From NCBI RefSeq assembly GCF_009745975.1, contig NZ_WHOL01000121.1, positions 124,001-188,000 of the forward strand: a stretch of 64,000 nt of DNA, written 5' to 3'. This document shows, one piece after another, positions 41,345 to 59,761 of this stretch. Numbering within the stretch: the first letter of the stretch is position 1; every line of letters starts with the position of its first letter. Under the pieces are notes generated by a model. The model was not told the origin of the DNA. It searched no databases and saw only the letters and a list, made by a program, of their open reading frames with translations. The position numbers and the translations under genes were made by a program. The stretch comes from Actinokineospora pegani. GTDB lineage: Bacteria > Actinomycetota > Actinomycetes > Mycobacteriales > Pseudonocardiaceae.

Positions 41345-41351
41345 CGGGCGC

Positions 41352-42256: not shown

Positions 42257-45200
42257 GTGGACTCGCTCGGCACTGCTGGCCGCCGGACCAGCGGATGGGC
42301 TACGAGGTTGGTCGGGCACCAATTCGCTGTCGACTCCGAACTGGGGTGGGGACGATTGCACCCGAATGGGGGGAAAATCTCGTTCTTCGAGAGCCCGGCA
42401 AGCGCCGAGGTGGCGCTCGAGACGGCAGACCGGGAGTTGGAGGCGTCGTTCCTGCCTGCACAGGAGAGGGTCTGGTGGTTCGAGGGCGATCGTTGGATGG
42501 TTGGCCGAGTCAACATCCGCCACTCAAAAAGTGCGGGAGGTCACGAAGAGCAATACTATGTAGATTTTCCCAACGAGCGGACCGAACTGCTTCCTGCGGC
42601 CGAGTTGCGCGTGCGCTGGTCACTTCCCCTGTCGCGCCCTCTTGAGATGCTCAAAGAGGGCACCGTCGAGACCCGGTTTTTCCATTCCAACCGCACCCGC
42701 TTTCTGCACGGCGTGACCAACCAACACAGCGCGTCCTACGGGCTCAAAGGGCTGATGTCATCCGCGGTGGAGATCCACGAGCACCAGATCGGCGCCGCCC
42801 GTCGCGTGCTGTCCGACCCGGTCCCGCGCTACCTGTTGGCAGACGAGGTCGGGCTCGGCAAGACGATCGAGGCGGGAATGGTCTTGCGGCAATTTCTGCT
42901 TGACAGTCCCGGCGACGCCTTGGTCGTCACGCCCCAATCGGTCGCGGGCCAGTGGGAGTCAGAACTGGTGTCGAAGTTCCGGGTCGACCAGTTCCCCGGA
43001 CGGGTGAAGGTCGTCGCGCACGGCGAGATCGATCGGCAACCGCATGGCAAGCGACTGCTGACCATCGTGGACGAGGCCCACCGCTTGACCGACAACGTCG
43101 ACTACGAAGGGGACGGCGAGCGGGAACAGCGGTTCCAGGCGCTGCGCGACATCGCCCACTCATCCCATGCTCTCCTGCTGCTCAGCGCCACCCCCGTGCG
43201 CAGCAACGAAGACGGTTTCCTGGGGCTGTTGCACCTGTTGGACCCGCTCAACTACCCCCTGTCAGAGAAGGCGTCGTTCCACCGCCGCGTAGAAATTAGG
43301 GACGATCTGGCCGAGGTGATGTCGGCGCTGAGCAGCGGACTGTCGTTGCGCTACCTGGTCGAACCGCTGGAGGAGGTCGTCCACCTGCTGCCCAACGACG
43401 CAACTGTGCTTCGGACAGCCGAGGCGGCTCGTTTGCACATCACCGCAGGTGACTCCCGCGGCGCCGAGGTCGAGGTCAGCCGCCTGCGCGCGCACCTGTC
43501 GGAGACCTACCGGCTTCACCGGAGGATGATCCGCAGCAGGCGTGACTCAGTAGCCAAGAACGGGTTCCCGGCGCGCGGGAGGCAATTGGCGGCAGGTCAA
43601 AGCCCTCTGGTGGATGTTGATCCGCGTAGGGCGCGACTTCTCGAACTCCTCGACGAAGCCCGGTTGGAATTGGAACTGTCCGGGCTCCGCGAAGCAGGCC
43701 GCGTGCTCCAAGTCCTTGTAGGACGTTTCCAGGCACCCGTGCGTTCCTTGTCCGACCTCGTCGCGGCATTGCGCCTTGAGTCGGGCCATGACCTGTCCGC
43801 GGACGAAGCCGAAGCGGCCCGCGTGCTGCGCGAGACGGATTGGGGCGAGCAGTGGGCAGCCCGCTTGGGCGATGTGCTTTCCAACCCCGCGGAACAGGAC
43901 CGGATCAAGGCAGCAGTGGAGTGGGTCCGCCCGCGAGTGGTGCGGCGCAAGACAGCCATTGCCTGCACCCACCCGAACACCGCCCTGGCCGCAGCCGACC
44001 TGCTGGTACGGGAGTTCGGGAGCCATAGGGTCACAGCGCTACTCGAGGGGCAGAGCAAGGCTGAGCGCAAGAGCCTCGTTGCGGCCGCCGAATGCAGCAG
44101 CGAGAAGACCATAATCGTCATGGACCGGTCGGTCGAGGAGGGTGTGAACCTCCAGTTCATCGACGACGTGGTGCACCTCGACCTGCCCACGTCGGTTTCA
44201 CGCCTGGAGCAGCGGCTCGGTCGGTTCGACAGGTGGAGCCAGTTGAACTCCCCCGTCACCTCGCACCTGTTCGCCGAGCCCCCCGGCCCGCTCCGCGACC
44301 ACCTAGGGGCCTGGGGAACCCTGGTGTCCGAGGTGTTCAAAGTGTTCGAGACCTCCACCGCGACGCTGCAGTACGTCATAGCCGACATGGAGGCGAACTT
44401 CTTCACCACCGCGGTGGCCGAGGGGCTGGCGAGGGCCCGAGTCACAGTCGGCGACAACGCGGCGCTAGAGGGCCAGCGCAAGCGGATCGTGGGCCAAGAC
44501 CTACTGGACAGCATCGAGGACCGAGCCGACGACGCCGCGTTCGTCGACCGCATCGTCAAGATCGACTCACTCAGTAGGGAGATCGAACGCGAGTCGACGC
44601 GGTACGTACACGACATGCTCGGGTTCGCCGTGCGCCAGGACGAGTCGGAACTCCGATTCAGCGTCAACCCCAAGCACCCACCGCTGCTCTCCGAGCGCAC
44701 GGTGGACCGCCTGGACAAGAAGATCTTCGACCGCGCCTACACCTCCGACAGGATCGATGCGGGCACCGGGAAGGGGTTGCTGCGCGTCGGCGAGCCGTTT
44801 GTCGACGTCTTCGCCGACCTGGCCTCTCGGGACGACCGCGGGCGCGTGTTCGCCGTGGAGATGCGGTTCCAGTCGCAGAACCCGGATGCCAGGCCCACCG
44901 CAGCGTTCTGCTTCGACTTCAAGATCGGCCCTGCGAATGTCGCTGCCCCGGCTGGCGACACCGACATCGCGCGAGCGGTGCGGGCGCGGACGGCACGACT
45001 GCTCCCCACCACAATCGAGCGGGTGTGGTGGTCGCTGGCAGGCTTTGAGTGCACGCCCGAGCAGGTCGGGCAGCTTGAGGGCCCCCGGTGGAAGAACCTT
45101 GGCAGCGAACCGGAACGTTTCCGAGAACTGACGGCACCGATGGGCTGGCGCGCTGCTTGCGACAAGGCACTCGATGCAGCGGCCGGGGCCATTCGGGTCC

Positions 45201-45415
45201 GCGCCGACGTCGGCGGCAGGATCGAGACGGCCAGGAAGCGCGCGGCGCAGGAGCGGACGCGCGACGAGGCGATCTTGAACGCGCGCCCGATCTCGGAGCA
45301 GGTCGGCGGCTACGACAGCGTCGTCGCGAACGCTGTCGACGAGGCACTCGCGGTGCCGCAGTTCGCCCTGGAGAGTTGCGGCGCCGTGTTGATCACATGG
45401 GCTCCCGCACGATGA
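42257..45415 (+). CDS. dpdE: SNF2-family helicase, DpdE-like
   Basis: A 1052-residue SNF2-type ATPase. An N-terminal beta-rich domain (FAVDSELGWGRLHPNGGK ... FFESP) precedes the helicase core: DEVGLGKTIEAG (Walker A, 196-207), LTIVDEAHRL (DEAH-type Walker B, 269-278), LLLSATPVRSNEDG (motif III), then TIIVMDRSVEEGVNLQFIDDVVHLDLP and RLEQRLGRFDRW (motifs V/VI). The C-terminal 350 residues are unassigned. The enzyme would translocate on double-stranded DNA. With the next seven genes it matches DpdE of the 7-deazaguanine DNA restriction-modification system; DrmD of DISARM is a related SNF2 protein. The GTG start is chosen for GGGGGTG upstream. Stop overlaps the next ATG (ATGA). Confidence 0.78.
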   Translation: MDSLGTAGRRTSGWATRLVGHQFAVDSELGWGRLHPNGGKISFFESPASAEVALETADRELEASFLPAQERVWWFEGDRWMVGRVNIRHSKSAGGHEEQYYVDFPNERTELLPAAELRVRWSLPLSRPLEMLKEGTVETRFFHSNRTRFLHGVTNQHSASYGLKGLMSSAVEIHEHQIGAARRVLSDPVPRYLLADEVGLGKTIEAGMVLRQFLLDSPGDALVVTPQSVAGQWESELVSKFRVDQFPGRVKVVAHGEIDRQPHGKRLLTIVDEAHRLTDNVDYEGDGEREQRFQALRDIAHSSHALLLLSATPVRSNEDGFLGLLHLLDPLNYPLSEKASFHRRVEIRDDLAEVMSALSSGLSLRYLVEPLEEVVHLLPNDATVLRTAEAARLHITAGDSRGAEVEVSRLRAHLSETYRLHRRMIRSRRDSVAKNGFPARGRQLAAGQSPLVDVDPRRARLLELLDEARLELELSGLREAGRVLQVLVGRFQAPVRSLSDLVAALRLESGHDLSADEAEAARVLRETDWGEQWAARLGDVLSNPAEQDRIKAAVEWVRPRVVRRKTAIACTHPNTALAAADLLVREFGSHRVTALLEGQSKAERKSLVAAAECSSEKTIIVMDRSVEEGVNLQFIDDVVHLDLPTSVSRLEQRLGRFDRWSQLNSPVTSHLFAEPPGPLRDHLGAWGTLVSEVFKVFETSTATLQYVIADMEANFFTTAVAEGLARARVTVGDNAALEGQRKRIVGQDLLDSIEDRADDAAFVDRIVKIDSLSREIERESTRYVHDMLGFAVRQDESELRFSVNPKHPPLLSERTVDRLDKKIFDRAYTSDRIDAGTGKGLLRVGEPFVDVFADLASRDDRGRVFAVEMRFQSQNPDARPTAAFCFDFKIGPANVAAPAGDTDIARAVRARTARLLPTTIERVWWSLAGFECTPEQVGQLEGPRWKNLGSEPERFRELTAPMGWRAACDKALDAAAGAIRVRADVGGRIETARKRAAQERTRDEAILNARPISEQVGGYDSVVANAVDEALAVPQFALESCGAVLITWAPAR

Positions 45416-47856
45416 GTGCGATGGACCTCGAACAGTTGGCCGGGACGTCCAAGCGACTGGCACGCAGACTCACGCAGCCAGCCACACCTGCGGCTGAACT
45501 ACTCGCTCTGCTGAGATCAGCGCTGGTCGCACGAGGCTACCTGGCGGTGTGGGCGAGCGAGCCGCCGCTCGACACGATCCCGGACACCGCTTGGGCTGCA
45601 CACGGATTCACGCGTGCGGGCGACTCGCAGTGGAAGCCGGCCCGGTGGCTGCCTGCTTGGCTGGACACCCGCGGCACGGCACCCGACGAGGCAGCGGCGC
45701 AGCGGGCACCACGTCGTCCGAACTGGATGCTGGACGCGGACCAGTTCTACACCGACATCACCGGGCGCGAGCAGTATCTCAGCCCCGGGCAGAAAGCAGC
45801 GGTCCGCGCCGTCAGCGCAGCTGAGCCCGGCGACTCGGTTATCTGCGTGCTGCCGACCGGCTCAGGCAAGACCGACGTGGTGCTGACGCGGGCGCTGCGC
45901 AGGCGCCCTCTCCAGACCTGTCTGGTCGTCCCGACGGTTGCGCTGGCCATCGACCTGGAGCGGCGGGCACGCGTGATGGCGGGCGAGGCCACGGCCCACT
46001 TCACCTACCACGGCCAGCTTGGCGACGAAGCCAAGCGCGAATTGGCCATACGGTTCCGCGAGGGCTCCCAGTGGCTGGTTATCGCCTCGCCGGAGGCGGT
46101 CTGCACCGTCTTGTCGGGCCCGTTGGAGACTGCTGCCGCAGAGGGCAGGCTGGACCTGGTTGCCATCGACGAGGCACACATCGTGGCCGAGTGGGGGGAC
46201 GACTTCCGCCCGGCCTTTCAAACGCTGGCGGGCCTGCTCGCCCGTCTCGCGCAGCGTGCCCCCGTCGGGCAGCAGCCCGTCACCGCCATGCTCACCGCAA
46301 CGTTGGACAACCACGGTCTGAGGACCTTGAAACGGCTGTTCCCTGGCCGCCACGAACTGGTCGTGTCCGCGCAGGCGACACGGCCGGAGCCCTCTTGGTG
46401 GGCGATCAAGTGCGCCTCCGAGGACGACAAACGAGCAAGGTTCCTGGAGGCCTGCCGCCACCTGCCTCGGCCCCTGCTCGTCTACACGACCCTGCACAAC
46501 TCCGAGCGGTCGACGAACGTGACCACCGCGCTGCGATGGCTGCGCGAAGCGGGTTATCACGCGGTCAGCGGCGTGAGCGGCAGCACCCGGGCGTCCGACC
46601 GCGGGGCCGTCGCCGACGGCCTGCGCATGGCGGGACCTGTCAGCCGGGACCTCGACGTCGTCGTGGCGACCTCCGCCTTCGGCCTCGGCGTCGACCTGCC
46701 CGATGTGCGCGGGGTCGTCCACCTGTGCCTGCCGGAATCAATTGACCGCCTCTACCAAGAGGTCGGTCGGAGCGGCCGCGACGGCGCCGCGTCGACCTCG
46801 CTGGTGCTGTGGACCGATGCCGACGCCGACATGGCCAGGGGGCTCGCCGACGCACGCCTGATCGGCGACGCGAAGGCGTGGAAGCGGTGGCGGAGCATGC
46901 GGGCGGGGATGACCGGCGGCCCGGCTCCCCAGGTCGACCTCACCGCCGCCACCGACGACGTCACCTACCCGTGGAGCGACGCTAACCGCTACTGGAACCT
47001 GCAGACGCTCAGTGGTATGGCCCGCGCCGGGATGATCGCGCTGGACTGGCCGACACCGCCGCAGGTGCCCGCGGACTGCACCGACGAGCAACTCGAGAAC
47101 ATCTTCGCCGCCCATCGGCGGACCACGGCCGTGCGCATCCTTGACAGCGACTTGGGCGACGAGGCCCAGTTCCGCGCGCGGTTCCGCGCGGGCCAGTCGA
47201 CGGCAAGGACCGCAGGCTCGGCCTCGTTGGACTCGGCCCTGTCCCTGGTCAGCGGCGCGGGAACGTGCGTCAACAGCGTGCTCGCCGAGCACTACCGCTT
47301 GGCCTCCGGGACGAGCAGGCTCGACGCGGTGCGCCAGTGCGGTGGGTGCCCGGCGTGCCGCGCCGCGGGCAGGACCGCGACCGCGTCGACCACCCCCGCC
47401 GAGGCGCTGTTCGACGGCGGTTTGGCGGTGCGGCCACGACGCGTCCTCGACGGCCTCGCCCTTGATGGCAAGCTCTGCGTCTGGACCGACGGCGACCAGG
47501 CTGATGCCGAGGACGAACTGATCCGACGGCTGCACGCTGCGGGCGTGGTGGCCTTCATCCCTCCTGGCCTGCCGCCGCGCCCGGCCAAGACGGCGGCAGG
47601 CTTGTGGTGGCAGGACCAGCCCGCAGAGCTGTCACGCACGGTGATCGAGGCCCTCCGCGTACCCACGCTCGTCCGCATCCGCGGCGACGACTGGGACCCG
47701 AGTCAAGCGGGCCTGCTGCTGAGCAGGCTCGCCCCCGGACCATTGACCGTCGTGCTGACCACCCGCGACCACCCGAGCCCCTTCGACAGCAGAAAGCTGC
47801 TCAAGGAATCATGGGGCCGCCAACACCGAATCGACCACTTGCTGCGGAGGCTGTGA
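45412..47856 (+). CDS. dpdF: RecQ-like helicase, DpdF-like
   Basis: An 814-residue superfamily 2 helicase. LSPGQKAAVRAV (Q-like motif), CVLPTGSGKTDVVL (Walker A, about 145-158), LVAIDEAHIVAEWGDDFRP (DEAH, 249-267), AMLTATLD (motif III), FGLGVDLPDVRGVVHLCLPESIDRLYQEVGRSGRDG (motifs V/VI of RecQ type). After the core, four cysteines (TCVNS, CGGCPAC) may form a zinc site. The C-terminus ends in a degenerate phosphoribosyl-like fold. It would unwind DNA 3'-5'. ATG 45412 overlaps the DpdE stop; the next ATG follows its stop directly. Confidence 0.78.
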   Translation: MSAMDLEQLAGTSKRLARRLTQPATPAAELLALLRSALVARGYLAVWASEPPLDTIPDTAWAAHGFTRAGDSQWKPARWLPAWLDTRGTAPDEAAAQRAPRRPNWMLDADQFYTDITGREQYLSPGQKAAVRAVSAAEPGDSVICVLPTGSGKTDVVLTRALRRRPLQTCLVVPTVALAIDLERRARVMAGEATAHFTYHGQLGDEAKRELAIRFREGSQWLVIASPEAVCTVLSGPLETAAAEGRLDLVAIDEAHIVAEWGDDFRPAFQTLAGLLARLAQRAPVGQQPVTAMLTATLDNHGLRTLKRLFPGRHELVVSAQATRPEPSWWAIKCASEDDKRARFLEACRHLPRPLLVYTTLHNSERSTNVTTALRWLREAGYHAVSGVSGSTRASDRGAVADGLRMAGPVSRDLDVVVATSAFGLGVDLPDVRGVVHLCLPESIDRLYQEVGRSGRDGAASTSLVLWTDADADMARGLADARLIGDAKAWKRWRSMRAGMTGGPAPQVDLTAATDDVTYPWSDANRYWNLQTLSGMARAGMIALDWPTPPQVPADCTDEQLENIFAAHRRTTAVRILDSDLGDEAQFRARFRAGQSTARTAGSASLDSALSLVSGAGTCVNSVLAEHYRLASGTSRLDAVRQCGGCPACRAAGRTATASTTPAEALFDGGLAVRPRRVLDGLALDGKLCVWTDGDQADAEDELIRRLHAAGVVAFIPPGLPPRPAKTAAGLWWQDQPAELSRTVIEALRVPTLVRIRGDDWDPSQAGLLLSRLAPGPLTVVLTTRDHPSPFDSRKLLKESWGRQHRIDHLLRRL

Positions 47857-48852
47857 ATGGCGCTGCTGACCTCGCCGGACATGCTTCCCGAGGGCACGCG
47901 GTTCTTGACGCGCGCGCTCGTGGCCACCAAGGGCAAGCCCGTTGACAGGGACGAACTCACTGCCCTGGTGGCGCCGCCCGGCCTCGCTGAGGCGATGACC
48001 ACCCTGGTAGCAGTGATCGACGACGACGCTCCCGACGACGCCGACGAGAGGGAGCAGGCCACAACGGGCGATGCGGGGAACGAGGCTGCGCAGCGGTCCC
48101 TGGACGCTTTGCGCACCCTCGGGGTCGTCGACATCGCCAAGAATGAGGTGGCCCTGTCCGAGGTCACTGCCCGGTTGTGGTCACGACCAGAACACGTCAC
48201 CCCGCGCGCCTTCCGCGCTTTCATGCTGGACCGGTTCCTGCAGACCGCCGACCCGCAGGCTGCGCCGGACAGCATCGAGGGTGTGATGGACTTGGTGCAC
48301 GCCCTTGACCTGTTCTATACTGCGGAAGAGCCGATGCGCCCGATGGCGCGGTTCAAATCTGGGCCGAAGGGGCCGGGTTTCGCCGCCTTGCAGACTGCGG
48401 CGCTAGGCATCGACGACGACCTGTGGCCGGTGCGCAACGCCACCCGCTGGACTCCGTTCGTTCGCTGGGCTTGCTACCTCGGCCTGGCGCGAAACGTCAG
48501 TCCGAGCGCGATGGTCCCCGACGCCAGCACCGCACTCGCCCTGCGCCTGTCCTCCCTGGAAAGCAGGACGTACCGGGCCAGCGAGTTCGTCGCGCAGTGC
48601 GCCGCCGCCGTGCCCCTGCTGGACGGAGGCGCGTTGCAGCGGACATTCACTGTTGAGTGGACGGGCGACACACAGGTCATTTCACCCGCCCTGTCAATCT
48701 CACTGCTGCAACTGGAGGCCGACGGCGCAGTCACGTTCAGCAAGCAAAGCGACTCCGGGGTGTGCGTCTTGCGCACCCGACCGGACCGGTCCACCGACAA
48801 GCCGGTCACCTCGATCGAGTGGACGGCCAACGCCGAGAGGGGGGCCGCATGA
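47857..48852 (+). CDS. dpdG: DpdG-like protein
   Basis: A 331-residue protein with no known catalytic motif. The N-terminus (TRALVATKGKPVDRDELTALV) is winged-helix-like. The middle repeats a helical theme around ARLWSRPEHVTPRAFRAFMLDRFLQ and LWPVRNATRWTPFVRWACYLGLARNV, and the C-terminus is a mixed region. ATG directly follows TGA of DpdF. Order, size and position match DpdG; identification rests on operon context. It could be a DNA-binding or adaptor subunit. Confidence 0.62.
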   Translation: MALLTSPDMLPEGTRFLTRALVATKGKPVDRDELTALVAPPGLAEAMTTLVAVIDDDAPDDADEREQATTGDAGNEAAQRSLDALRTLGVVDIAKNEVALSEVTARLWSRPEHVTPRAFRAFMLDRFLQTADPQAAPDSIEGVMDLVHALDLFYTAEEPMRPMARFKSGPKGPGFAALQTAALGIDDDLWPVRNATRWTPFVRWACYLGLARNVSPSAMVPDASTALALRLSSLESRTYRASEFVAQCAAAVPLLDGGALQRTFTVEWTGDTQVISPALSISLLQLEADGAVTFSKQSDSGVCVLRTRPDRSTDKPVTSIEWTANAERGAA

Positions 48853-51845
48853 GCGGCAACCTGGTCTGCTGGAACCGTGAGGCTGTCGATACCGCCACGC
48901 AGGTCGACGTCGGAGGTCTGCAGGTCGACGACGCCCACGCCGACGCGGTGTTCGCCGCGATCCACCAGCCCCTGCCGCTCAAGCGGGTCCGCGACGTCCG
49001 CCAGAACCAGACCTCCCCGGCGACCGAGAGCGACCTGCTGGCGGAGTTCACCAAGCCGATTAACGCCAATGAGCCAAGGCTGGTGTTCGTCACCGGCCCC
49101 AAGGGCAGCGGCAAGAGCCACCTTGTGCGCTGGCTGAAGTCGCAGATCGGTCCCCGGCCCTTGTGGCACGTGGTCTACATCGAAAAGCGCAACACCAACC
49201 TTCGCCGTGTCATCGAACTGATCCTCGACGGCATCGACACACCGAGAGCCATCCAACTCCGCGCCACGCTGGCCAGAGCCAGCGCGGAGATCGCCAGCGA
49301 CGCTGAGGCGGTCAACGCGCTGCTCAGCCGACTGGACCACCTGATCCAGTTCGACCGGTCCGGCGCGCTCAAGGGCCTCGACGGAGTGCCTGAGCCGGAG
49401 ATCAAGGAGTTGCGCACGACCGCGCACCGACTGCTCGGCGACTTCACCTTCCGCCAGGAGTTGAGCAAGCAGGACGGGCCAATCCACCGACTGGTGCGAC
49501 TTGCCCGCGGCGGGGCGGGCGCGTCCGAGACCGACGAGGCCGACCTGCACGTGACCGAGGGTGACCTCGTCGTCGAGGCTTCGCACTTCGAAGACCTCGG
49601 CCAGGAAATCCAGCGCCTGGTGAAGCAGGTCAACAGCAGCAGGTCCCTGCGCGCGGACCTCGCGGCGTTGTGCGACTCGTACCTGGAGCGCGCCAAGGGC
49701 GAGGTCTTCACCGGGCCGAGCACCGACCTGCTCGAGGTGTTCGAGGACGTCCGCAAGGAGATCCACTCGCGGGGCAAGGAACTGTGCCTGTTCGTCGAGG
49801 ACCTGGTCCTGCTGCACGGCATCGACAAGCAGTTGGCGCAGGCCCTGACCATCCCCGCGAACCGGCAACTGTGCAGGCTTCGCGCGGCGATCGCCGTTAC
49901 CGACGGTTACCTGCGCTCGGTGGACACGTTCGCCGACCGGGGGAGCCACTTCGTGATCGATGTAGACATGCCGGAGATCGGCCAGTCGCGGTTGCGGGAG
50001 TTCGTCGGGCGCTACCTCAACGTCGGCCGCCTCACCGCGACGGAACTGGCCGTAGAACAGCAGCCCGCAACGACCGCCAACGCCTGCCTGCACTGCGAGC
50101 TGCGGCCCCGTTGCCACGACGCTTTCGGGGCCACGCCGCTGGGGCACGGGCTGTACCCTTTCAACGCCCATGCGGTCGACCGCCTGGTGGAGCTGGCCAG
50201 TCCGGACGAGTTCCGTCCGCGCGACATCCTGCGCCACGTGATCCGCGACTCCCTGGAAGTCGCCGAGGACGAACTGCCTCGAGACGGGGCCTTTCCCTCC
50301 TCGGCGTTCGCGCGGACCCTCGACAGCTCCCGGCGAGCGGTCCCGGTCGACGTCAGGGCCACAGTCCACAGGCAGAACCCCTCCACCGCGGAGCCCGAGG
50401 TGAGCTTGCGGGCCTTCTACGCCGACACCCCGCCAGCCGTGGACGGGCACCTGAAGAAGATCGCCGCGTACTTGCGCGTCGCCCTGAGCGACCTGCCCAG
50501 CGACTCAGGCGGCGACGCTGCAGCCGAGATAAGCTTGGATGCGTCGGCAATCGGGCCGTCGACGGCGCCGTCGAGGCAGAAATCGGCCAAGCCCGCGGTC
50601 GATAAGCCTGCGGAGAGCACGAAGCGTGACGAGTTCCAACTCTGGACCGACGGGGTCCAACTGCCCAGTGGAACAGCCAACAAGATCCGGACCTGGATCT
50701 GCAACAACATCGTCACCGTCCTGCGGGGCGGTGAGCATGGACTGTTGGTCGCCAAGACCACAAAACGCTCGTGGCGGGTCGGTGCGCACGAGTTGCGCCT
50801 GACCGATGTCAAGATCGCAAACGCCGCAGGCAGTGGCGGCATCGCGTCGGACACGCCGTTCCCCATCGCTGTGACCGACGACAACGCGCTGATGTTGAAG
50901 GGGATCGCCGCCGCCTCGGACGGCAAGCCGCTTGACGAGGTGGACGGCGGCGTCTGGTACTTCGCGGTGCAGTCGCGCATCGGCCGTTACGCCGAGCGAA
51001 TCGCGGTACTGGCCTCGCGGGACGCCGAAGCGCGTGTGGCGGAGGCCGCGCGCGCTCTCACCGTCCTACGAGGAAGCGCCGCCCGGCCCGGGACCTCGGT
51101 CGTCGAAGCGCTACCCGCGATGCTGGACCCGACTCCTCTCGCAGGGGCGAATCGGGCGTTGCGGGACTTCGCAACCGACACCAGGCCCGCCCACCGCATC
51201 TGTCTCTCGGTGCTGCGCGACCACATGACGGGTGCCAAGGGCGCGGGCAAGCCAATCATCCTCGACATCGGCCCGATTTACCGGACCATCGCGCAAACCC
51301 TGACGACCACAACCTTTGCTGAACTGGAGCAGAAACACGGCGGCGAGATCTTTGCGGGACTGCAGGTCCGGCTCGCTCGAGCGGCGGACAAGGGGTGGTC
51401 GGAGGTCGGCAACCTCACGACCGACCTCGCCGCCCGCTTGGACCCTCGGGAGGACCTGGCGGTGGCCATGTCAGTGATCGAGCAGTTGGTGGACCGAGGG
51501 CACCTTGCGGGAAAGCTGCCGAACCAACGCGCCAAGCAGGAGTACGAAGATGCCGCCTCTGATGTGTCGCCTGCGCTGATGGCGGTCTACCAGCGCGCGG
51601 CCGCCGTCCCCCCGGGGCAGCGGGGCCCGGGTGCGCTGTGGGAGTTGCGTGAGGACCCAGTGCCCGGCCTTATTAAGCTCCGCGCCTACCTGGCCGCGGC
51701 TGAGAAGATCATGTCAGGGGTGGAGAGCAAACTTCCCGAGACGCACGACGGCGAGGCCTCGATCGACACCGAACTGCTCATCCAGGAGTTCAAAGGTCTG
51801 GCGGACCAGTTGGACGCGTTGGCCAAGAGAGGGGCACGGGCATGA
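48849..51845 (+). CDS. dpdH: P-loop ATPase, DpdH-like
   Basis: A 998-residue AAA+/STAND-type ATPase. FVTGPKGSGKSHLVRWL (Walker A, about 80-96) and LCLFVEDLVLLHG (Walker B, about 312-324) are clear. A cysteine cluster ACLHCELRPRCHD (about 413-425) could bind zinc. DVRKEIHSRGKELC and SLRAFYADTPPAVDGHLKKIAAYL precede an Ala/Ser-rich linker and a large C-terminal region with no known domain. ATGA overlap with DpdG. Size and position match DpdH. It is likely the regulatory or signalling ATPase of the complex. Confidence 0.72.
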   Translation: MSGNLVCWNREAVDTATQVDVGGLQVDDAHADAVFAAIHQPLPLKRVRDVRQNQTSPATESDLLAEFTKPINANEPRLVFVTGPKGSGKSHLVRWLKSQIGPRPLWHVVYIEKRNTNLRRVIELILDGIDTPRAIQLRATLARASAEIASDAEAVNALLSRLDHLIQFDRSGALKGLDGVPEPEIKELRTTAHRLLGDFTFRQELSKQDGPIHRLVRLARGGAGASETDEADLHVTEGDLVVEASHFEDLGQEIQRLVKQVNSSRSLRADLAALCDSYLERAKGEVFTGPSTDLLEVFEDVRKEIHSRGKELCLFVEDLVLLHGIDKQLAQALTIPANRQLCRLRAAIAVTDGYLRSVDTFADRGSHFVIDVDMPEIGQSRLREFVGRYLNVGRLTATELAVEQQPATTANACLHCELRPRCHDAFGATPLGHGLYPFNAHAVDRLVELASPDEFRPRDILRHVIRDSLEVAEDELPRDGAFPSSAFARTLDSSRRAVPVDVRATVHRQNPSTAEPEVSLRAFYADTPPAVDGHLKKIAAYLRVALSDLPSDSGGDAAAEISLDASAIGPSTAPSRQKSAKPAVDKPAESTKRDEFQLWTDGVQLPSGTANKIRTWICNNIVTVLRGGEHGLLVAKTTKRSWRVGAHELRLTDVKIANAAGSGGIASDTPFPIAVTDDNALMLKGIAAASDGKPLDEVDGGVWYFAVQSRIGRYAERIAVLASRDAEARVAEAARALTVLRGSAARPGTSVVEALPAMLDPTPLAGANRALRDFATDTRPAHRICLSVLRDHMTGAKGAGKPIILDIGPIYRTIAQTLTTTTFAELEQKHGGEIFAGLQVRLARAADKGWSEVGNLTTDLAARLDPREDLAVAMSVIEQLVDRGHLAGKLPNQRAKQEYEDAASDVSPALMAVYQRAAAVPPGQRGPGALWELREDPVPGLIKLRAYLAAAEKIMSGVESKLPETHDGEASIDTELLIQEFKGLADQLDALAKRGARA

Positions 51846-52597: not shown

Positions 52598-55500
52598 GCA
52601 CCAGCATCTCCACCGACGCGCTCATGCGCGCCCTCGACGTCATCGAGGAAGCCGAGACACGCAACCTCGCCTGGGGGCTGTTCGACGAGTCGTGGACCCG
52701 CGACGGGCTCCTCGACCTGCTCGCCGCCAGGTGGCAGGAAGGCTCCGCCGAGGAGTGCCTCGACCGCTTGGTCGAGGAGCAACTGCTCCTGCAACTGCCT
52801 GCCTCCTGGCCGCAGGCTTACCGCACCCGGATGTCGGAGACGGTCCGCCTCTTCAGCAAGCTGCGGCAACTGTTCCCAAACCAGCCCTGGCAGACCGGCG
52901 CCCGCCTCGTGTCCGACATTCGCTTCACGCGGCAGCCGCGGATGTTCTCCGAGCGGGATATTGCCCCGGATGCCTGTGTCGAACGACTCGCGCAATTGGG
53001 AGTCCCCGAGACTGTCCTCGTCGAGGTCCGCCGCGTGCTAGGCGGCAGAAAGCTCTCGCGGTTCCAGTTGGCGGCGACGGCTGCGGTGGTCAACGCCACC
53101 CGCTCCAGTGAGGACCGGGGGGTTGTGGTCAGCGCGGGGACCGGTAGTGGAAAGACCCTCGCCTTCTACTTGCCCGCGCTCTCGCGGATGTCCGCGGAGA
53201 AACCAGCCTCCGGGCGCGCTGTGGCGATCTACCCGCGCAACGAACTGCTCAAGGACCAGTTCGCGACAGCCCTAGCGGAGATCCGCCGCCTGCGCCAGGC
53301 CGGGGGCAGGCAGTTGACAATCGGCGCGTACTTCGGCCCCACGCCCTTCTCCGTCAATGAGCCCCCACCGGCGTGGGGCGGGTGGCGAAAGCGCGGGAAA
53401 CGGTACATCTGCCCGTTCCTGACCTGCCCGTCGCTGGAAGACGACGGCTCCGTCTGCGCGGGCGAACTGAGCTGGGACAAGCCTCGAAACGGCGACGACG
53501 TGCTGAACTGGGGACGCTTGGTCTGCTTGCGGTGCGAGGACGCCGTCACAGGCGACGAATTGCGGTTGACGCGAACATCCATCCAGCGCGACCAACCTGA
53601 CATCCTGTTCACCACCACCGAGATGCTCAACCAACAGTTGAGCGACGGGTGGTCCAGGCACGTGTTCGGCGCGGGCGGCAACAGCAAGCGCAAGCCGAAC
53701 CTCGTGCTGCTCGACGAGATCCACACCTTCACCGGGACCAGCGGAGCCCAAGCGGCATTCCTACTACGGAGGTGGCGCAAACTGCTCGGCACGCACGTGA
53801 CCTGGGTCGGCTTGAGCGCCACCTTGGCCAACGCGGCGACCTTCTTCGCCGATCTGTGTGGGCTCAACGTGGATAGCATCGAGGACATCCGCCCCGCCGA
53901 CAGCGACCTTAAGCCCCACGGCAGCGAGTACCAACTGCTCCTGCGCGGAGACCCTGCCTCGCAGTCCGCGCTGTTGTCGACGACCATCCAGAGCCTCATG
54001 CTGCTCCGCCGCGTGCTTGGCCCCCGAGGCAGTACTGCGACCAGCCCGTACGGGTCGCGGGTGTTCGCCTTCCTGGAGAACCTGGACCTGGTCAACCGCC
54101 TCTACCGGCAGGTACTCAGCGCAGAGGGGCGCAACCCGTTCGGCGAGGTGGACACTTCGAAAAAAGTGCTCGCCGCGTTGCGCTCAGACCACGTCGTGCC
54201 TGGCGACGAGCGGATGGACCGAGACAGCGAGGGCCAGTACTGGTGGCTGCCCAGTCTGCTCGGGTTCGAGCAGCACCCCTTGCAGATCTCTCGGACGTCG
54301 TCGCAAGACAGCGGCGTCGACAGTAGCGCTGACGTGATCGTGGCGACATCCTCGCTGGAGGTCGGCTACGACGACCCTCGCGTCGGCGGCGTGCTCCAAC
54401 ACAAGGCACCGCGTGACATAGCTCAGTTCCTGCAGCGACGCGGTCGTGCGGGCCGAGTGCAGTCCCAACGCCCATGGACGGTGGTCGTTCTCTCCGACTA
54501 CGGCCGCGACCGGCTCGCATTCCAGTCCTATGAGTCAATACTAGATCCGTCCGTGCCAGCCAAAAGTCTGCCGCTGGGCAACCAGTCGGTGCGGAAGATG
54601 CAAGCCGCGATGTGCCTAGTTGACTGGATCGCTATCCGCTTGAGTGCCGACGGCAACAGGCGGTGGGATGCCCGCAAGCTCCTGCGCGAACCGAACTCGG
54701 AGAACCAGGCGATCGCCCGTCGCTGTGCCGAGCTGCTGCACGAGGTTCTGGAGGGCGGACAGGCCCAGCACGACCTCGTCGCGTTCGTGCGCGAAAGTCT
54801 CCGGCTCAGCGACGATGAGGCCGCTAGCGTCTGCTGGGAACACCCCCGCTCGCTGCTGCTGGAGGTCGTACCTACCGCTTACCGGCGCCTGGCCAGCCAG
54901 TGGGCGGCCGTCGACGAGACGCGGCAGCTACGGCAGCAGATAGACACCGTCGCGCGGCAACCGCTGCCGGAGTACATCCCGAAGACGCTGTTCAGCGACC
55001 TGGAACTACCCGAGGTCGAGGTCGCTCCACCCGACGACTACGACCCCGCAGCCGACACCTCGCTTCCCGTGGGCATGGGCTTGAGCGAGCTGGCCCCCGG
55101 CAAAGTCACGCTGCGCTGGGCGGTGCAAAAGGTTCGCGGCCTGTGGGTCGAAGTCCCGCCCGGTGGCGTCGTAGACCTCGACGACCGCCTCGCGCCCGGC
55201 GGTGAGGTGTTGCGCGATGTGGACTCTCCGGCTGGGCTCGTGCCGCTGGTGCGTCCGATACGGATCCGACCCGAATCGCCCAGCAAGGACATCGACGCCG
55301 CCTCTAACGCCCGGTTGCGGTGGCGGTACCTCATCGACGAGGGCATTGGCGGCACCGCGCTGCCACGCGCGCGAAACAGCCCGCTGGGCGACCTCGTCGC
55401 CGAGGTGACCGCGTTCCTCAACATCGACCGGGGGCCGTTGCGCACATGGCGCTACGCCCTCGACGGCACTGCGGAGATCGTCACAAGGTCAGGCGGCCGT

Positions 55501-57021
55501 GTACGCCAGGACTACACCTTCACCAGGAACGGGTCACCCGCAGCAGTTGGTTTCGCCTCGACAGTCGACGCATTGGTGGTCGTCGTCCACGCGCCTGCCT
55601 CGATCGAAAGTTTCGACCTGCTCGACGACCCGGACCGACTCCGACAACTGCGCACCGACCGCTTCCAGCACTTGGCCGTCGAAGGTTTGACGACACGGGG
55701 GCTTAACCCCTTCGCTGCGGGCTGGGTCACCGATGTCGCCGTCTCCGTCGCCGCACAGGCAGTGCTGCACGGCGGAACAGCGCAGGACTTGGTGACCGCG
55801 CCGTTGTCGCAGTGGAAGGAACTCGCGGAGCAGGTCGTGGACGGCGTGCTGTTGGCGACGTCGCACACCGACCTAGAGCAGACACCGCTGCGCGACGTCG
55901 TACTGGACACCCTCAGCGACCCGCAGATGACCGATGTGCTCCGCGCCGCGCTGTCTGTCCTCGTCACCGCTCCTGACGTGTCGTGGCTGCCGTGGCTGCG
56001 GGCCCGGTTCCTGCAGACCGTGGCGGCTGCGTGGCAGTCCGCTGCACAGCAGGTGTGCCTGGACTTCAACGTCGACACTGATGCCCTTGTCGATGTGGTC
56101 GACGAAGGTGGCCTCACCGCCCGTGTTGTGCTGTCAGACTCTGTGCCAGGCGGAGGAGGCCTGGTCGAGACGCTGGTCCGCCGCATCTCAGACGATCCCC
56201 GACGTTTCGACACGCTGGTCGCGACCGCAACGGAAGCCAGCGACACCGAAGAGGTCGATCCGTCGCTTCGCCGGGCGCTGGGCCTACTGGGAGAGGACGT
56301 CGACGTGGCTGCCGCGGCGGAGGCGTTCAGGTCCGCCCCGCACAACAACCGCTTGGCACTGTGGCAGAATTTGATCAACATGCTGGCTGACAAGGGTATC
56401 TCGCGCACGAGGATGGCCCTCTCGGCGCTCTCGGCGAGGGTTTTCCGCCCGGGATCCAGCCGCAGCAGCGACAAGTTGCTGCGGACGCTGCTGGACCAGT
56501 GGGACGCGATCGACCTGCGCGCGGGGTTCGCTATCGACCACCGGTCGGTCTGCGCGTTCCTCGCCGAAGACGGCCAGGTGCTGGCAGCCTTGCAGCAGCT
56601 GGCAGGGTCGAGCACCGGCGATGACCGACGTGCACGGGCGCAATCGGTCTTGCTCAGCTTGCTCTGGACCAGGGCATGCGCGCGGCGGCCCGAGACGCTG
56701 CGCGCCAGCAATCGCTTCGTGGCCAACCCTCCCGCAACTGAGCGCACCTTCGTCGAACACGCACTTCCCGGCCGGCCGAAGGGCGTCGATGTCGACCGGA
56801 ACGGATGGCGCGAGGACCTCATCGCGGTCTTGCGCACATGGGGAGAAGCCCGGGTCTTCAGCACCAAGGCAAACGCGTCAGCCTTGTCCGCAGCCGTGCG
56901 AAGTCTCATCGTCGACCCCCTGGAGGTCGATTGGCTGCACGCCTATCCCAAGGTGACCGGCGCGGTCAGGGACGGCGGCAGACACTCCGTGTCCGTGACC
57001 CTGCAAGAGGCGCCACAGTGA
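52594..57021 (+). CDS. dpdJ: Large DEAD/DEAH helicase with zinc insert, DpdJ-like
   Basis: A 1475-residue helicase, the largest gene here. SAGTGSGKTLAFYLPAL (Walker A, 180-196), LVLLDEIHTFTG (DEIH) and WVGLSATLANAATF (motif III). VATSSLEVGYDDPRVGGVLQHKAPRDIAQFLQRRGRAGRVQ holds motifs V/VI. Between motifs Ia and II is a cysteine insert (CPFLTCP ... CLRC, about 293-345). The C-terminal half includes VVLSDSVPGGGGLVETLVRR, reminiscent of the DUF1998 domain of DISARM DrmB. That makes it like a DrmA-DrmB fusion, as DpdJ is. GTG 52594 overlaps the DpdI stop; its stop overlaps DpdK. Confidence 0.78.
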   Translation: MSTSISTDALMRALDVIEEAETRNLAWGLFDESWTRDGLLDLLAARWQEGSAEECLDRLVEEQLLLQLPASWPQAYRTRMSETVRLFSKLRQLFPNQPWQTGARLVSDIRFTRQPRMFSERDIAPDACVERLAQLGVPETVLVEVRRVLGGRKLSRFQLAATAAVVNATRSSEDRGVVVSAGTGSGKTLAFYLPALSRMSAEKPASGRAVAIYPRNELLKDQFATALAEIRRLRQAGGRQLTIGAYFGPTPFSVNEPPPAWGGWRKRGKRYICPFLTCPSLEDDGSVCAGELSWDKPRNGDDVLNWGRLVCLRCEDAVTGDELRLTRTSIQRDQPDILFTTTEMLNQQLSDGWSRHVFGAGGNSKRKPNLVLLDEIHTFTGTSGAQAAFLLRRWRKLLGTHVTWVGLSATLANAATFFADLCGLNVDSIEDIRPADSDLKPHGSEYQLLLRGDPASQSALLSTTIQSLMLLRRVLGPRGSTATSPYGSRVFAFLENLDLVNRLYRQVLSAEGRNPFGEVDTSKKVLAALRSDHVVPGDERMDRDSEGQYWWLPSLLGFEQHPLQISRTSSQDSGVDSSADVIVATSSLEVGYDDPRVGGVLQHKAPRDIAQFLQRRGRAGRVQSQRPWTVVVLSDYGRDRLAFQSYESILDPSVPAKSLPLGNQSVRKMQAAMCLVDWIAIRLSADGNRRWDARKLLREPNSENQAIARRCAELLHEVLEGGQAQHDLVAFVRESLRLSDDEAASVCWEHPRSLLLEVVPTAYRRLASQWAAVDETRQLRQQIDTVARQPLPEYIPKTLFSDLELPEVEVAPPDDYDPAADTSLPVGMGLSELAPGKVTLRWAVQKVRGLWVEVPPGGVVDLDDRLAPGGEVLRDVDSPAGLVPLVRPIRIRPESPSKDIDAASNARLRWRYLIDEGIGGTALPRARNSPLGDLVAEVTAFLNIDRGPLRTWRYALDGTAEIVTRSGGRVRQDYTFTRNGSPAAVGFASTVDALVVVVHAPASIESFDLLDDPDRLRQLRTDRFQHLAVEGLTTRGLNPFAAGWVTDVAVSVAAQAVLHGGTAQDLVTAPLSQWKELAEQVVDGVLLATSHTDLEQTPLRDVVLDTLSDPQMTDVLRAALSVLVTAPDVSWLPWLRARFLQTVAAAWQSAAQQVCLDFNVDTDALVDVVDEGGLTARVVLSDSVPGGGGLVETLVRRISDDPRRFDTLVATATEASDTEEVDPSLRRALGLLGEDVDVAAAAEAFRSAPHNNRLALWQNLINMLADKGISRTRMALSALSARVFRPGSSRSSDKLLRTLLDQWDAIDLRAGFAIDHRSVCAFLAEDGQVLAALQQLAGSSTGDDRRARAQSVLLSLLWTRACARRPETLRASNRFVANPPATERTFVEHALPGRPKGVDVDRNGWREDLIAVLRTWGEARVFSTKANASALSAAVRSLIVDPLEVDWLHAYPKVTGAVRDGGRHSVSVTLQEAPQ

Positions 57022-57554
57022 CGACCAGGCTGATCCACCGACAAGCCGCGTCCCCCAGCCGCGAGATCGCCGAATGCCTGGAGGGGATGCTCCTGAGCGA
57101 ATTGCTGAGCCCCGGCAGGTCGCTGCTGGTGATGTCCCCGTGGATGTCCGACTTTCCTGTCGTAGACAACCGGGGAGGGCGATTCACCTCAATCGAGCAG
57201 TCGTGGACCGCCTCGCTCGTGCCGTTCTCCGCAGTGCTGCGCGCACTGCTTGTCCGAAGGGTCGAGGTCCGCCTGGCCTGTGGCCCTGGCGACCGCGACA
57301 GCGAGTTCGCCAAACGCGTCGAGCGGGGCGCCCAACTCGATGGGACATCGGCGCGCTTGTCAATCTCCCCGCTCCCGCACAGCGACAAGGCACTCAGCCA
57401 CGAGAAGGCACTGGTCGCGGACACGTGGGCAATCTACGGCTCGATGAACCTCACCTACCGCGGCGTCACCTTCAACGGTGAACTGATCACGGTGACCACT
57501 GACCTGGCCACCGTGACCAAGGTCGGGACCGAACTGCGCGGGGTGTTCGCGTGA
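57018..57554 (+). CDS. dpdK: Phospholipase D-like nuclease, DpdK-like
   Basis: A 178-residue PLD-superfamily protein with a single HKD motif: SHEKALVADTWAIYGSMNLTYRG (HxKx4D, then GSxN). One HKD per chain implies a dimer, as in PLD nucleases. VLRALLVRRVEVRLACGPGD and LLVMSPWMSDF fit the fold. It is the only clear nuclease domain in the operon and the likely DNA-cutting subunit; DISARM DrmC is its relative. GTGA overlaps on both sides. Confidence 0.8.
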   Translation: MTTRLIHRQAASPSREIAECLEGMLLSELLSPGRSLLVMSPWMSDFPVVDNRGGRFTSIEQSWTASLVPFSAVLRALLVRRVEVRLACGPGDRDSEFAKRVERGAQLDGTSARLSISPLPHSDKALSHEKALVADTWAIYGSMNLTYRGVTFNGELITVTTDLATVTKVGTELRGVFA

Positions 57555-59761
57555 GCCCGACTCCTGACGCGGAGTGGTCCGCATTCCTTGAGGGCTTCTT
57601 CGCTGACCCCAACGAACTGCGTCCCCATGGCAGCCGGAGCCTGCGGGACTTGATCGACGAGGCGCGACAAGCCTGGTTCAGCGATCCGCAGAGGCCGATG
57701 TTCCTGCCGCTGCGCGCCTCCTCCTACACCTACTGGTACGCGATCTTTCCCGACCGCAGCCAGCAACCCTGGGTGCGAGACCTGGTCCGCGCCCACGTGG
57801 GATCGTGGATCAGCACCCAGGTCGCCGTTGAGGGGGACTCCACCACAGCGGTCGACGCCCCGGTGCGCGCCCTCATCGGTGACCAAGGCGCCGCGTTCAG
57901 GTTCCTCGTGGCCCGCCACGCCGACGCGGTGTCGATGACCCGCGACAGCATCGCCCGACTTGTGCGGACCCTCGCGCAGCGTCCGCACCGCAAGGTCAGA
58001 CTCCTGCCCCCGCTCGGGATGGTGCTCGGCGATTTCGCCGACGCGTGCGCCTCTGGCGCGCAGTCGCTCGCGGCGAGTCATCTCGACCGCCTTGAACAAG
58101 ACCACAGGCTCTCCAAGACCAACAAACTGTTCTTACGGCTGCGCTACCTCGCGGTGTTCGAATGCTGGCAGGAACTGGCGGACCTTCCGGAGTTCCCGGA
58201 CCTGCTCCGCCTTGACCGCCCCGCCGCGGCGTCAGACGCCCTGGCCCGATATGCGATGGCGCGAGTGCCGCTCGATGCCGATCTGGCCGCCTTCGCCGAG
58301 CAGACGCCCGAGTTCGGCAACCTCGTGCCATCGGTGACCGCGATCAGGTCCGCCGCGGGCGCGCAATACTACGCGTTCTGGTCGGTCGCCTCCGGCGAGC
58401 GCAGCAGCGCCGTATCCGCCCGATTGGCCGAGGCGGGCTGGCTGGACCACGCCACCGACCGGCCGGGCTTGGCCCTCATTCTAGGAGGAGGACCGGACCA
58501 GGACCCGACGGCGACTGTTGAGGTCGATCCCCAGGTGCTGCACGACGCCGTGGCCAGGGGCCGTTTCGACGCCGCGATCGAACTGCTGAGCGCGTCCAAG
58601 CCCACAACTCACCTGCTGGAGGTGCTCACCGAGGTTCTGCTGTCCACCTTCCACCCGCAGGCGATCGCCTTGTTCCAACGGTGGAAGAGCGTGCTTGGCC
58701 CCGACGAGGCCACTGTCGCGCTCACGGCGCGAGGCACGCCCTCTGTCGCGCGGAAGTCGGCGGAACTGGCGACCGCTGACTTCGGAGCGGCGCTGAGGCA
58801 AGCATTCACCGACTCCAACGCTGTGCAACGGGCTGAGGCCTTTGAAGAACTCAAAGAGCACTCGATTGCACGTCTCATGAGGCCTGGGGTGCTGGCTGAT
58901 GTGTTGGCGGTGGTGCGCTCGCTGAGCGGAGACATCGACCAGTCGTTGCGCCCTGAACTGGTGGACCTGCTGCTGGACATCGAACGCGACCTGTACGCGG
59001 CGTCGAAGAACGTGCCTGGCATCCAAGACCTGCGTGTTCTGGTTATCGAGACGTGGGCGTTGAACGACGCTACGGGCGACAGGCGCCGGGTCGAGCGGGT
59101 CATCGATTTGGTGGCTCGAACCCTGGCGAGCGGTCTGGGAACCGAGACGTACAGCGACGTGGTGGACGGGCTCATCCTGGCATGGGCACCGTTCCAGACC
59201 TCAGCGGATCTCGAACTGGGACTGGAAGCTGTAGAGGTGCTCGCCGCATGGCGGCCTGATTCCGACTCCCATCTGCTCGAATTCGCCGTCCCGATCATCA
59301 GCCGGATCGGCGTACACAACGCATCGAACCTGGGGCCTTCGTGGCTACAGACCGCGGTCCGACTGGGAACCGACTTCGGCCTTGACCTCACCGGCCTGTT
59401 AGTCCCGTTCGACAGTGCCACAGACGGCGATGACGCCCTGCGGGTGCCCAGTGGGACCGTGATCGCGATCTACTCCTTGATCGAGCCTGCAGCGCGCAGG
59501 GCTGCCGACGTGCTCAAGGCCACCTTTGCGCACATCCGCGTCGACGTACTCTCGGACAAAGTCGCCACCGAGGCGCTGCGCACCGCGAGTCGGACGGCGG
59601 ATGTCATGGTGATCGCAGACAAAGCAGCGGCGCACGCCGCGACTGACGCCATTAAGGCAGCGCGCGGCACCAAGCCGCTTGCTTATGCGCGCGGAAAGGG
59701 AACTGCATCCCTACTCGACGCGGTCTACCAGGAACTCGCGAGCGCGTTCGCGAGAATTTAG
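57551..59761 (+). CDS. dpdD: DpdD-like protein
   Basis: A 736-residue protein closing the operon. Residues 1-600 are mostly helical (repeat-like, e.g. LRLRYLAVFECWQELADLPEF). The last 100 residues form an alpha/beta domain: AIYSLIEPAARRAADVLKATF, RVDVLSDKVATEALRTASRTADVMVIADKAAAHAATDAIKAARG, ending in GKGTASLLDAVY, a Rossmann-like pattern without a clear catalytic set. Length, position after DpdK and this C-terminal domain suit DpdD. GTGA overlap with DpdK. 130 bases then lead to the IS element; that gap (59762-59891) has no supported gene. Confidence 0.65.
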   Translation: MSPTPDAEWSAFLEGFFADPNELRPHGSRSLRDLIDEARQAWFSDPQRPMFLPLRASSYTYWYAIFPDRSQQPWVRDLVRAHVGSWISTQVAVEGDSTTAVDAPVRALIGDQGAAFRFLVARHADAVSMTRDSIARLVRTLAQRPHRKVRLLPPLGMVLGDFADACASGAQSLAASHLDRLEQDHRLSKTNKLFLRLRYLAVFECWQELADLPEFPDLLRLDRPAAASDALARYAMARVPLDADLAAFAEQTPEFGNLVPSVTAIRSAAGAQYYAFWSVASGERSSAVSARLAEAGWLDHATDRPGLALILGGGPDQDPTATVEVDPQVLHDAVARGRFDAAIELLSASKPTTHLLEVLTEVLLSTFHPQAIALFQRWKSVLGPDEATVALTARGTPSVARKSAELATADFGAALRQAFTDSNAVQRAEAFEELKEHSIARLMRPGVLADVLAVVRSLSGDIDQSLRPELVDLLLDIERDLYAASKNVPGIQDLRVLVIETWALNDATGDRRRVERVIDLVARTLASGLGTETYSDVVDGLILAWAPFQTSADLELGLEAVEVLAAWRPDSDSHLLEFAVPIISRIGVHNASNLGPSWLQTAVRLGTDFGLDLTGLLVPFDSATDGDDALRVPSGTVIAIYSLIEPAARRAADVLKATFAHIRVDVLSDKVATEALRTASRTADVMVIADKAAAHAATDAIKAARGTKPLAYARGKGTASLLDAVYQELASAFARI

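What the first reader, a model, noticed from the sequence alone, without database searches (positions are those of the whole stretch)
42257..59761. Dpd-like restriction operon without its modification genes
Eight consecutive genes encode a SNF2 helicase, a RecQ-like helicase, an adaptor-like protein, a P-loop ATPase, a helical protein, a large zinc-insert helicase with a DUF1998-like part, a single-HKD PLD nuclease and a helical protein with an alpha/beta tail. This is the product set and order E-F-G-H-I-J-K-D of the restriction side of the Dpd system, which in Salmonella Montevideo restricts DNA lacking 7-deazaguanine. Known clusters also carry dpdA, dpdB, dpdC and preQ0 synthesis genes; none are present from 1 to 64,000. 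Either the protection half lies beyond the IS30 element or elsewhere, the host tolerates the complex without the modification, or this is a distinct defence type that recognises something else. Helicase and PLD calls are seen in the sequence; the Dpd identity is by recall of gene order and families.
Basis: partly seen in the sequence, partly recalled or inferred. Interest (0 to 1): 0.92.

Follow-up and report, generated by a model that had tools for sequence, protein, structure and literature searches.

The report
Dpd restriction cassette with unlinked modification
The eight genes are the DNA-cutting half of a known bacterial defence system (Dpd); its self-marking half was not missing but sits elsewhere in the same genome, and comparison with relatives suggests that the cutting half is repeatedly swapped as a cassette while the marking half stays.

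Summary
The window carries an intact eight-gene operon, dpdE-F-G-H-I-J-K-D, at 42257-59761. Curated Dpd models confirm six genes above cut-off; dpdG falls just short and dpdI rests mainly on position.

"Without its modification genes" is wrong for the genome: contig C98 carries dpdC-dpdB-dpdA-dpdB with queC, queE, queD and folE2.

Further results:

(1) DpdJ and DpdA always co-occurred in the genomes searched, but in 4 of 7 they are not in one locus as assembled; in one single-contig genome they lie 3.24 Mb apart.

(2) Modification proteins follow host relatedness (DpdA 82% identical to a same-genus species). Restriction proteins do not (DpdJ 32-36% to all 11 compared). Beside the modification cluster lie broken dpdE and dpdD pieces of another cassette.

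(3) Of 99 pairs of linked actinobacterial loci with DpdA at least 85% identical, 36 carry restriction proteins under 60% identical.

So this is a known system whose restriction cassette has probably been replaced and acts in trans.

The parts
42257..45415 (+). dpdE, SNF2-type helicase (1052 aa)
   Evidence: NF041062 753.8 bits vs cut-off 500; motif I GLGKT, DEAH, QRLGR
45412..47856 (+). dpdF, RecQ-like helicase (814 aa)
   Evidence: NF041063 619.4 bits vs 550; GSGKT, DEAH, QEVGR
47857..48852 (+). dpdG (331 aa)
   Evidence: NF041064 78.7 bits, cut-off 80, profile 1-289/290
48849..51845 (+). dpdH, P-loop ATPase (998 aa)
   Evidence: NF041065 450.7 bits vs 450; GPKGSGKS
51842..52597 (+). dpdI by position (251 aa)
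   Evidence: only NF041066 E=0.017 over residues 199-240; same place as the unnamed gene between dpdH and dpdJ in L003, L004 and L091
52594..57021 (+). dpdJ, YprA-family helicase (1475 aa)
   Evidence: NF041067 1449.4 bits vs 800, profile 1-1482/1482; GSGKT, DEIH, CLRC at residue 311
57018..57554 (+). dpdK, single-HKD PLD nuclease (start at the GTG overlapping the dpdJ stop)
   Evidence: NF041068 127.9 bits vs 100, scanned from 56805, match from residue 76; H-x-K and GSMN invariant in 7 of 7 aligned DpdK
57551..59761 (+). dpdD (736 aa)
   Evidence: NF041061 347.8 bits vs 300
   Evidence: HTH_38 and rve domains; broken relatives, 43-47% identical, beside the modification cluster at L007:7825-8753
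29543..64000 (.). left part of a ~43 kb accessory region (C121:153.5-196.7 kb) that holds the operon and runs beyond the window end
   Evidence: same-genus single-contig genome G006 is collinear on both sides and has 1.16 kb here; GC 0.67 in the operon, 0.75 left of the region, 0.70 right of the tRNA-Leu

Best explanation
The window holds the restriction half (dpdD-K) of a complete Dpd (7-deazapurine in DNA) system whose modification half sits in a separate place in the same genome. Inferred from the known families: FolE2, QueD, QueE and QueC make preQ0; DpdA with DpdB swaps it for guanine at some sites in host DNA; DpdC hydrolyses it to ADG; and DpdD-K (three helicases, one ATPase, one PLD nuclease and partners) destroys DNA lacking the mark. 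Shown here: the halves are on different contigs, at least about 41 kb apart. The modification half tracks host relatedness. The restriction half belongs to a deeply different lineage and lies in a ~43 kb accessory region. Inferred: it replaced an older cassette that had stood next to dpdB, of which broken dpdE and dpdD pieces remain. More widely, Dpd restriction halves behave as exchangeable cassettes joined to the modification half just after dpdB.
For: Dpd models for the operon. Full modification cluster on C98, DpdA keeping GDCGAF and CxCxxC...H (A1; GDCGAF). No canonical TGT found in the genome, so preQ0 from C98 has no evident tRNA use. DpdJ and DpdA over cut-off in the same 6 of 200 relatives and the same 2 of 396 phylum genomes (G000 in both samples). 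Not in one locus in G000, G004, G008 and G069 (3.24 Mb apart on one contig), one locus in G073, G135 and G230 (same calls). Identity matrices. Broken dpdE and dpdD pieces beside dpdB, closest to G073, whose intact dpdD faces dpdB the same way. Accessory region against G006, and the same left flank in G004. Pairs with near-identical modification genes and unlike restriction proteins. Restriction lineage (11 labels) needs at least 22 changes on a quick DpdA tree of 78 rows; minimum possible 10; shuffled mean 26.3, lowest 23 of 300.
Against: No modification of DNA and no restriction was measured. The distance between C121 and C98 is unknown: at least about 41 kb, and the matching sites in G006 are 88 kb apart. 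For G004 both halves lie within a few kb of contig ends, so closeness there cannot be excluded. The order of loss and gain is not shown. The broken pieces are short; beside G073, only weak matches (E 5e-5 to 0.009) to other lineages were seen. dpdG is just under, and dpdI far under, its curated score. G006 has no tRNA-Leu at the site and no long attachment repeat was found, so the mode of integration is unproven. The end of the DNA match after dpdB is not special to swaps: 13 of 34 concordant pairs also end within 235 bp of it, 4 at 864-915 bp and 17 at 6953 bp or more.
Confidence: 0.86

Rival explanations
1. Orphan restriction operon: the host tolerates DpdD-K without any 7-deazaguanine in its DNA.
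For: No modification gene found within the 64 kb window.
Against: A complete dpdC-B-A-B plus queC/E/D/folE2 cluster is present on C98 of the same genome; in the genomes searched, neither DpdJ nor DpdA was over cut-off without the other.
Confidence: 0.03
2. The window's restriction lineage recognises a different mark (for example dPreQ0 only, another deazaguanine, or something unrelated) and its pairing with the C98 cluster is incidental.
For: DpdJ is only 32-36% identical to the 11 other systems compared, the same-genus ones included; dpdG and dpdI are hardly recognisable.
Against: All eight genes and their order are kept; the nearest DpdE found (43%, L176) lies in a linked Dpd locus with dpdC-B-A-B and preQ0 genes; near-identical modification clusters pair with several restriction lineages elsewhere.
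Confidence: 0.09
3. The two halves are really one locus and only split by contig breaks.
For: C121 and C98 have consistent orientation with G006 and could lie on the same chromosome arm; C98 begins in a repeated gene.
Against: 32 kb of C121 follows dpdD and 9 kb of C98 precedes dpdB; the cis position next to dpdB holds broken dpdE/dpdD pieces instead; G069 shows true separation on one contig.
Confidence: 0.04
4. The restriction operon is an inert passenger of the accessory region.
For: A transposase gene stands directly behind dpdD.
Against: All eight frames are open; E, G, H, J, K and D profiles match over nearly their whole length and F over most of it; motifs are kept, unlike the broken pieces on C98.
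Confidence: 0.08

Closest known systems
Dpd (7-deazapurine in DNA) system, as in Salmonella Montevideo
   Same: All eight restriction genes in the same order as annotated Dpd loci, plus dpdA, dpdB, dpdC and preQ0 genes in the same genome
   Different: Halves not in one locus; two dpdB copies around dpdA (also in relatives and in Agrobacterium; extra dpdB copies are reported in PMC11888242, passages); restriction proteins of a lineage with no close relative found
Dpd locus of Actinocrinis puniceicyclus (L176)
   Same: DpdE 43% identical over 1048 aa, the nearest found
   Different: There the restriction genes stand next to dpdC-B-A-B
DISARM
   Same: Shares a YprA-family helicase and a PLD-type nuclease (PMC12458937, passages) and SNF2-helicase similarity (DrmD hits)
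   Different: Drm models score far below Dpd models on every protein that they match. A DISARM methylase was not sought
Islands called 'lacking the restriction operon' in GATOR-GC (PMC11888242, passages read)
   Same: dpdA-C without neighbouring dpdD-K, as on C98
   Different: That survey required dpdAB and looked in windows around them; here the restriction operon is in the same genome but far away

Membership tests
Dpd system | dpdD-K restriction genes | tested here: met
   six of eight over the curated cut-off, dpdG 78.7 vs 80, dpdI weak and by position
Dpd system | dpdA (TGT-like) and dpdB in the genome | tested here: met
   dpdA C98:10246-11460 (594 bits, cut-off 200); two dpdB at 516 and 400 bits (cut-off 300)
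Dpd system | dpdC | tested here: met
   PADLOC PDLC02817 E=3.3e-110, L007:12578-13492; no Pfam or NCBIfam match
Dpd system | preQ0 synthesis genes | tested here: met
   queC, queE and queD over an equivalog cut-off; folE2 195.7 bits, under its cut-off of 215; L007:13538-16065
Dpd system | modification and restriction genes in one island (usual, not obligatory) | tested here: not met
   window = C121; cluster = C98
Dpd system | dADG or dPreQ0 in host DNA and restriction of DNA without it | not testable with these tools
   needs nucleoside LC-MS and transformation assays
DISARM | DrmA/B/C as best match | tested here: not met
   best DrmD/DrmA/DrmC hits far below the Dpd hits
BRIGADE (PMC12458937, passages) | usually two YprA-like helicases; found in halophilic archaea | tested here: not met
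   one DpdJ match over cut-off in the genome; genome lies in a bacterial genus (by inference)

The most novel reading that the evidence does not exclude
Dpd is not one system but a shared identity mark with interchangeable enforcers. A resident modification cluster is kept, while deeply different dpdD-K cassettes are swapped in behind dpdB or brought in on separate mobile regions and work in trans. The mark-reading interface would then be the one thing conserved across lineages about 30% identical, and restriction lineages would turn over under phage counter-defence.
Probability: 0.55. Interest if true: 0.72.

Novelty: new variant of a known kind. Interest (0 to 1): 0.55.

Why it matters
How Dpd tells self from foreign DNA is open: a 2025 review says of the restriction activity that it "has not been further explored" (PMC12707154, passages). 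Natural pairs with near-identical modification clusters but different restriction cassettes (for example L219/L220, DpdA 98%, DpdJ 34%) are ready-made tests of which subunit reads the mark. They also suggest that gene-neighbourhood searches around dpdAB will under-count complete systems such as this one, and that an apparent orphan operon should be checked against the whole genome.

Tried and rejected
The orphan reading was rejected after the own-genome searches. A canonical TGT search of the genome was empty and at first seemed to support it; the generic TGT model simply misses this DpdA. A tRNA-Leu call beside the G008 operon was dropped: the sequence looked coding to me and the flank shows no similarity to the G000, G004 or G006 site. 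G006 first seemed to place the window's left flank at 6.35 Mb, but only one gene matched there; the collinear region is at 7.48-7.53 Mb. A long direct repeat as attachment site was not found: best off-site matches were 18 bases at 94% for the tRNA-Leu region (over C121:84001-216206) and 15 bases for the tRNA-Arg region (over C98:1-40000). G006 has no tRNA-Leu at this site, which tells against a simple tRNA attachment site. The first genome-contig scan, with DpdJ alone, confirmed no relative. DNA identity of the window operon to relatives is limited to stretches under 250 bp. Stops of the DNA match after dpdB are not diagnostic by themselves: I chose matches that reach to within 60 bp of dpdB2's end, so the lower bound is by construction, and 13 of 34 concordant pairs stop there too. 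The evidence for swaps is the protein discordance.

The DpdA tree is a quick one with open forks; pairs of loci are not independent. With the three largest lineages the observed 13 changes equal the lowest of 300 shuffles. Lineages are single-linkage clusters at 45% identity, my choice. Rows dropped: Paenibacillus left out of the tree; loci without a long enough DpdJ or DpdE frame had no label; 29 of 99 pairs show opposite ends of the cassette and were not compared. Only the best 80 of 266 confirmed DpdA loci were returned. Linkage thresholds (bit scores 45-150) may miss a very divergent cassette, so "4 of 80 without a linked restriction gene" is an upper count for loci with full flanks.
Full report
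What is there. The window 42257-59761 carries eight overlapping or abutting genes on the + strand. Curated models name them dpdE, F, G, H, (I), J, K and D. Six pass NCBIfam's cut-offs, dpdG misses by 1.3 bits, and dpdI is recognisable mainly by position. The frames are open and the helicase, ATPase and PLD motifs are intact. The gene order is that of annotated Dpd plasmid loci of Agrobacterium vitis and Enterobacter cloacae. That fits the single CxxC seen at residue 311.

The missing half is in the genome. The window is C121:124001-188000 of a 6.44 Mb, 128-contig, 99.4% complete assembly. QueC was found on contig C98. Around it lie dpdB2 (L007:9049-10155), dpdA (10231-11460), dpdB1 (11457-12632) and dpdC (12578-13492) on the minus strand, and queC (13538-14278), queE (about 14284-14910), queD (14865-15275) and folE2 (15268-16065) on the plus strand. 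dpdC rests on PADLOC alone and folE2 is under its curated score. DpdA keeps the GDCGAF motif and the CxCxxC...H residues (their roles are recalled from TGT enzymes). The genome has no canonical TGT over threshold. C98 belongs to this organism group: blocks beside the cluster are 73-85% identical to contig C126 of same-genus G004. The genus is Actinokineospora by inference: G004 and G008 coincide in contig length and position with records of A. spheciospongiae EG49 and A. inagensis DSM 44258.

Co-occurrence and linkage. DpdJ over cut-off: 6 of 200 relatives. DpdA over cut-off: the same 6 of 200. In 396 phylum genomes each was found in the same 2, this genome included. Of the 7 distinct genomes, 3 have the halves in one locus (G073, G135, G230) and 4 do not as assembled. 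G069 has them 3.24 Mb apart on one 9.17 Mb contig. G000 and G008 have them on different contigs, at least about 41 and 55 kb apart from the contig lengths. G004 has them on short contigs, each within a few kb of an end, so closeness cannot be excluded there. Among 80 named DpdA loci (the best of 266), 74 have a restriction gene within 10 kb, 4 have none with full flanks and 2 are cut by contig ends. Three of the 4 are Crossiella, Actinokineospora and Saccharothrix, of the same family by recall; two other Saccharothrix loci are linked. The fourth (L215) has a bare dpdA. The unlinked state looks rare.

Two histories. DpdA of this genome is 82% identical to same-genus G004, 76-77% to G008, G069 and G073, 53% to G135, 51% to G230 and 38-48% to the four plasmid systems with a DpdA. 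DpdB and, at lower level, DpdC fall off in much the same way (DpdC 67, 48, 59, 52, 35, 33%). DpdJ of this genome is 32-36% identical to all 11 others compared, same-genus ones included, although G004, G008 and G069 share 56-78% with each other. One family-level modification lineage is thus paired with at least three deep restriction lineages.

A fossil. On C98 an ~8 kb stretch (L007:1069-9048) separates dpdB2 from a tRNA-Arg(CCG) gene; in G004 and G069 dpdB2 ends about 0.35 and 0.9 kb from that tRNA gene. The stretch holds a serine recombinase gene, pieces of a transposase like the one behind dpdD, pieces of dpdE in several frames (6522-7583) and of the dpdD C-terminus (8731-9016), best matched by G073. 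The dpdD pieces face dpdB2 as the intact dpdD does in G073. So another restriction cassette probably once stood here in cis.

The newcomer's address. C121 is collinear with the single-contig same-genus genome G006 on both sides of a ~43 kb stretch (C121:153.5-196.7 kb) where G006 has 1.16 kb. The operon lies in it: GC 0.67, against 0.75 to the left and 0.70 right of the tRNA-Leu. About 1.5 kb inside its right edge a serine recombinase gene overlaps a tRNA-Leu(GAG). G004 has the same left flank followed, 27 kb on, by its own, different restriction operon in the opposite orientation, and then a short stretch like the end of that recombinase gene. The site thus seems reused by unlike cassettes; the right border in G004 is on another contig, so this is supported, not proven. 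In G006 the sites matching the two loci are 88 kb apart.

A general pattern. Among linked, labelled loci, 99 pairs have DpdA at least 85% identical. Of these, 36 have DpdJ or DpdE under 60% identical (20 of them under 45%), 34 have 60% or more, and 29 cannot be compared because opposite ends of the cassette are visible. In the 36 discordant pairs the nucleotide match through the modification genes ends between 7 bp before and 188 bp after the end of the dpdB2 match. Matches were chosen to reach to within 60 bp of that end; as a control, 13 of the 34 concordant pairs stop within 235 bp as well, 4 at 864-915 bp, and 17 run on for 6953 bp or more. Examples: L219/L220, 94% over 8077 bp of modification genes, DpdJ 34%; L171/L173, 92% over 8100 bp, DpdE 31%. 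Faster evolution of restriction proteins does not easily explain this, since the 27 DpdJ pairs with DpdA at 90% or more have median DpdJ identity 90%, with 2 under 45%. On a quick DpdA tree of 78 loci, restriction lineage (11 labels) needs at least 22 changes; 10 is the minimum possible, and shuffled labels give mean 26.3, lowest 23 of 300. With the three largest lineages alone (68 rows) it needs 13, minimum 2, shuffled mean 16.2, lowest 13. So lineage follows DpdA only weakly.

Mechanism. From established Dpd work (recalled, and passages of PMC12839542 and PMC11888242): preQ0 is made by FolE/QueD/QueE/QueC, inserted by DpdA with DpdB, and hydrolysed by DpdC to ADG; DpdD-K is the restriction operon. 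[quoted passage not shown] I infer that the window's operon does the same job in trans, and that swaps succeed because the lineages spare the same mark. A cassette entering a cell that already marks its DNA would be harmless, which would explain why the modification half is the stable one.

What is new. Paper searches (no paper; 33: 29 listed; 73: 20 of 36 listed; 74: 8 listed; 86: 10 of 44 listed) showed none that I recognised as describing unlinked halves or cassette exchange in Dpd. I saw the listings, and passages of PMC11888242, PMC12458937, PMC6884629, PMC12839542, PMC12707154, PMC12137116 and PMC13329287. The two most relevant works, the 2016 PNAS paper and the 2024 review, are not held, so this is no claim that it is unpublished.

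Noticed in passing
L092 (Paenibacillus sp. 37 plasmid pART37), 16404-43356: One plasmid locus carries two genes annotated dpdJ and what look like two restriction cassettes in tandem, with dpdA and preQ0 genes nearby.
   Followed up: no
L091 (Nostoc sp. C057 plasmid p057_I): dpdE-J, then six small genes before dpdK and dpdD; the plasmid is not among the 25 plasmid records with a DpdA match, so its modification half may also be in trans.
   Followed up: partly
L215 (Actinomadura sp. J1-007): dpdA with queC, queE and queD but no dpdB, dpdC or restriction gene found within 10 kb.
   Followed up: no
L065 (G008): In the 20 kb fetched the modification cluster lacks dpdB1, queE and queD, and dpdB2 is cut at a run of N, although dpdE, F, H, J, K and D are present on another contig.
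   Followed up: partly
L122:9687-10706 (G006): A same-genus genome has a canonical TGT gene next to DNA like queC/E/D, about 15 kb from the same tRNA-Arg(CCG) where dpd sits in this genome.
   Followed up: no
window 33659-34324 and 34368-35525: Endonuclease V and an HSDR_N-type gene side by side in the accessory region; both have counterparts in the G004 accessory region, there not side by side.
   Followed up: no
L005:8655-9695: A gene with MrcB_N and NOV_C domains between the tRNA-Leu and the flank shared with G006.
   Followed up: no
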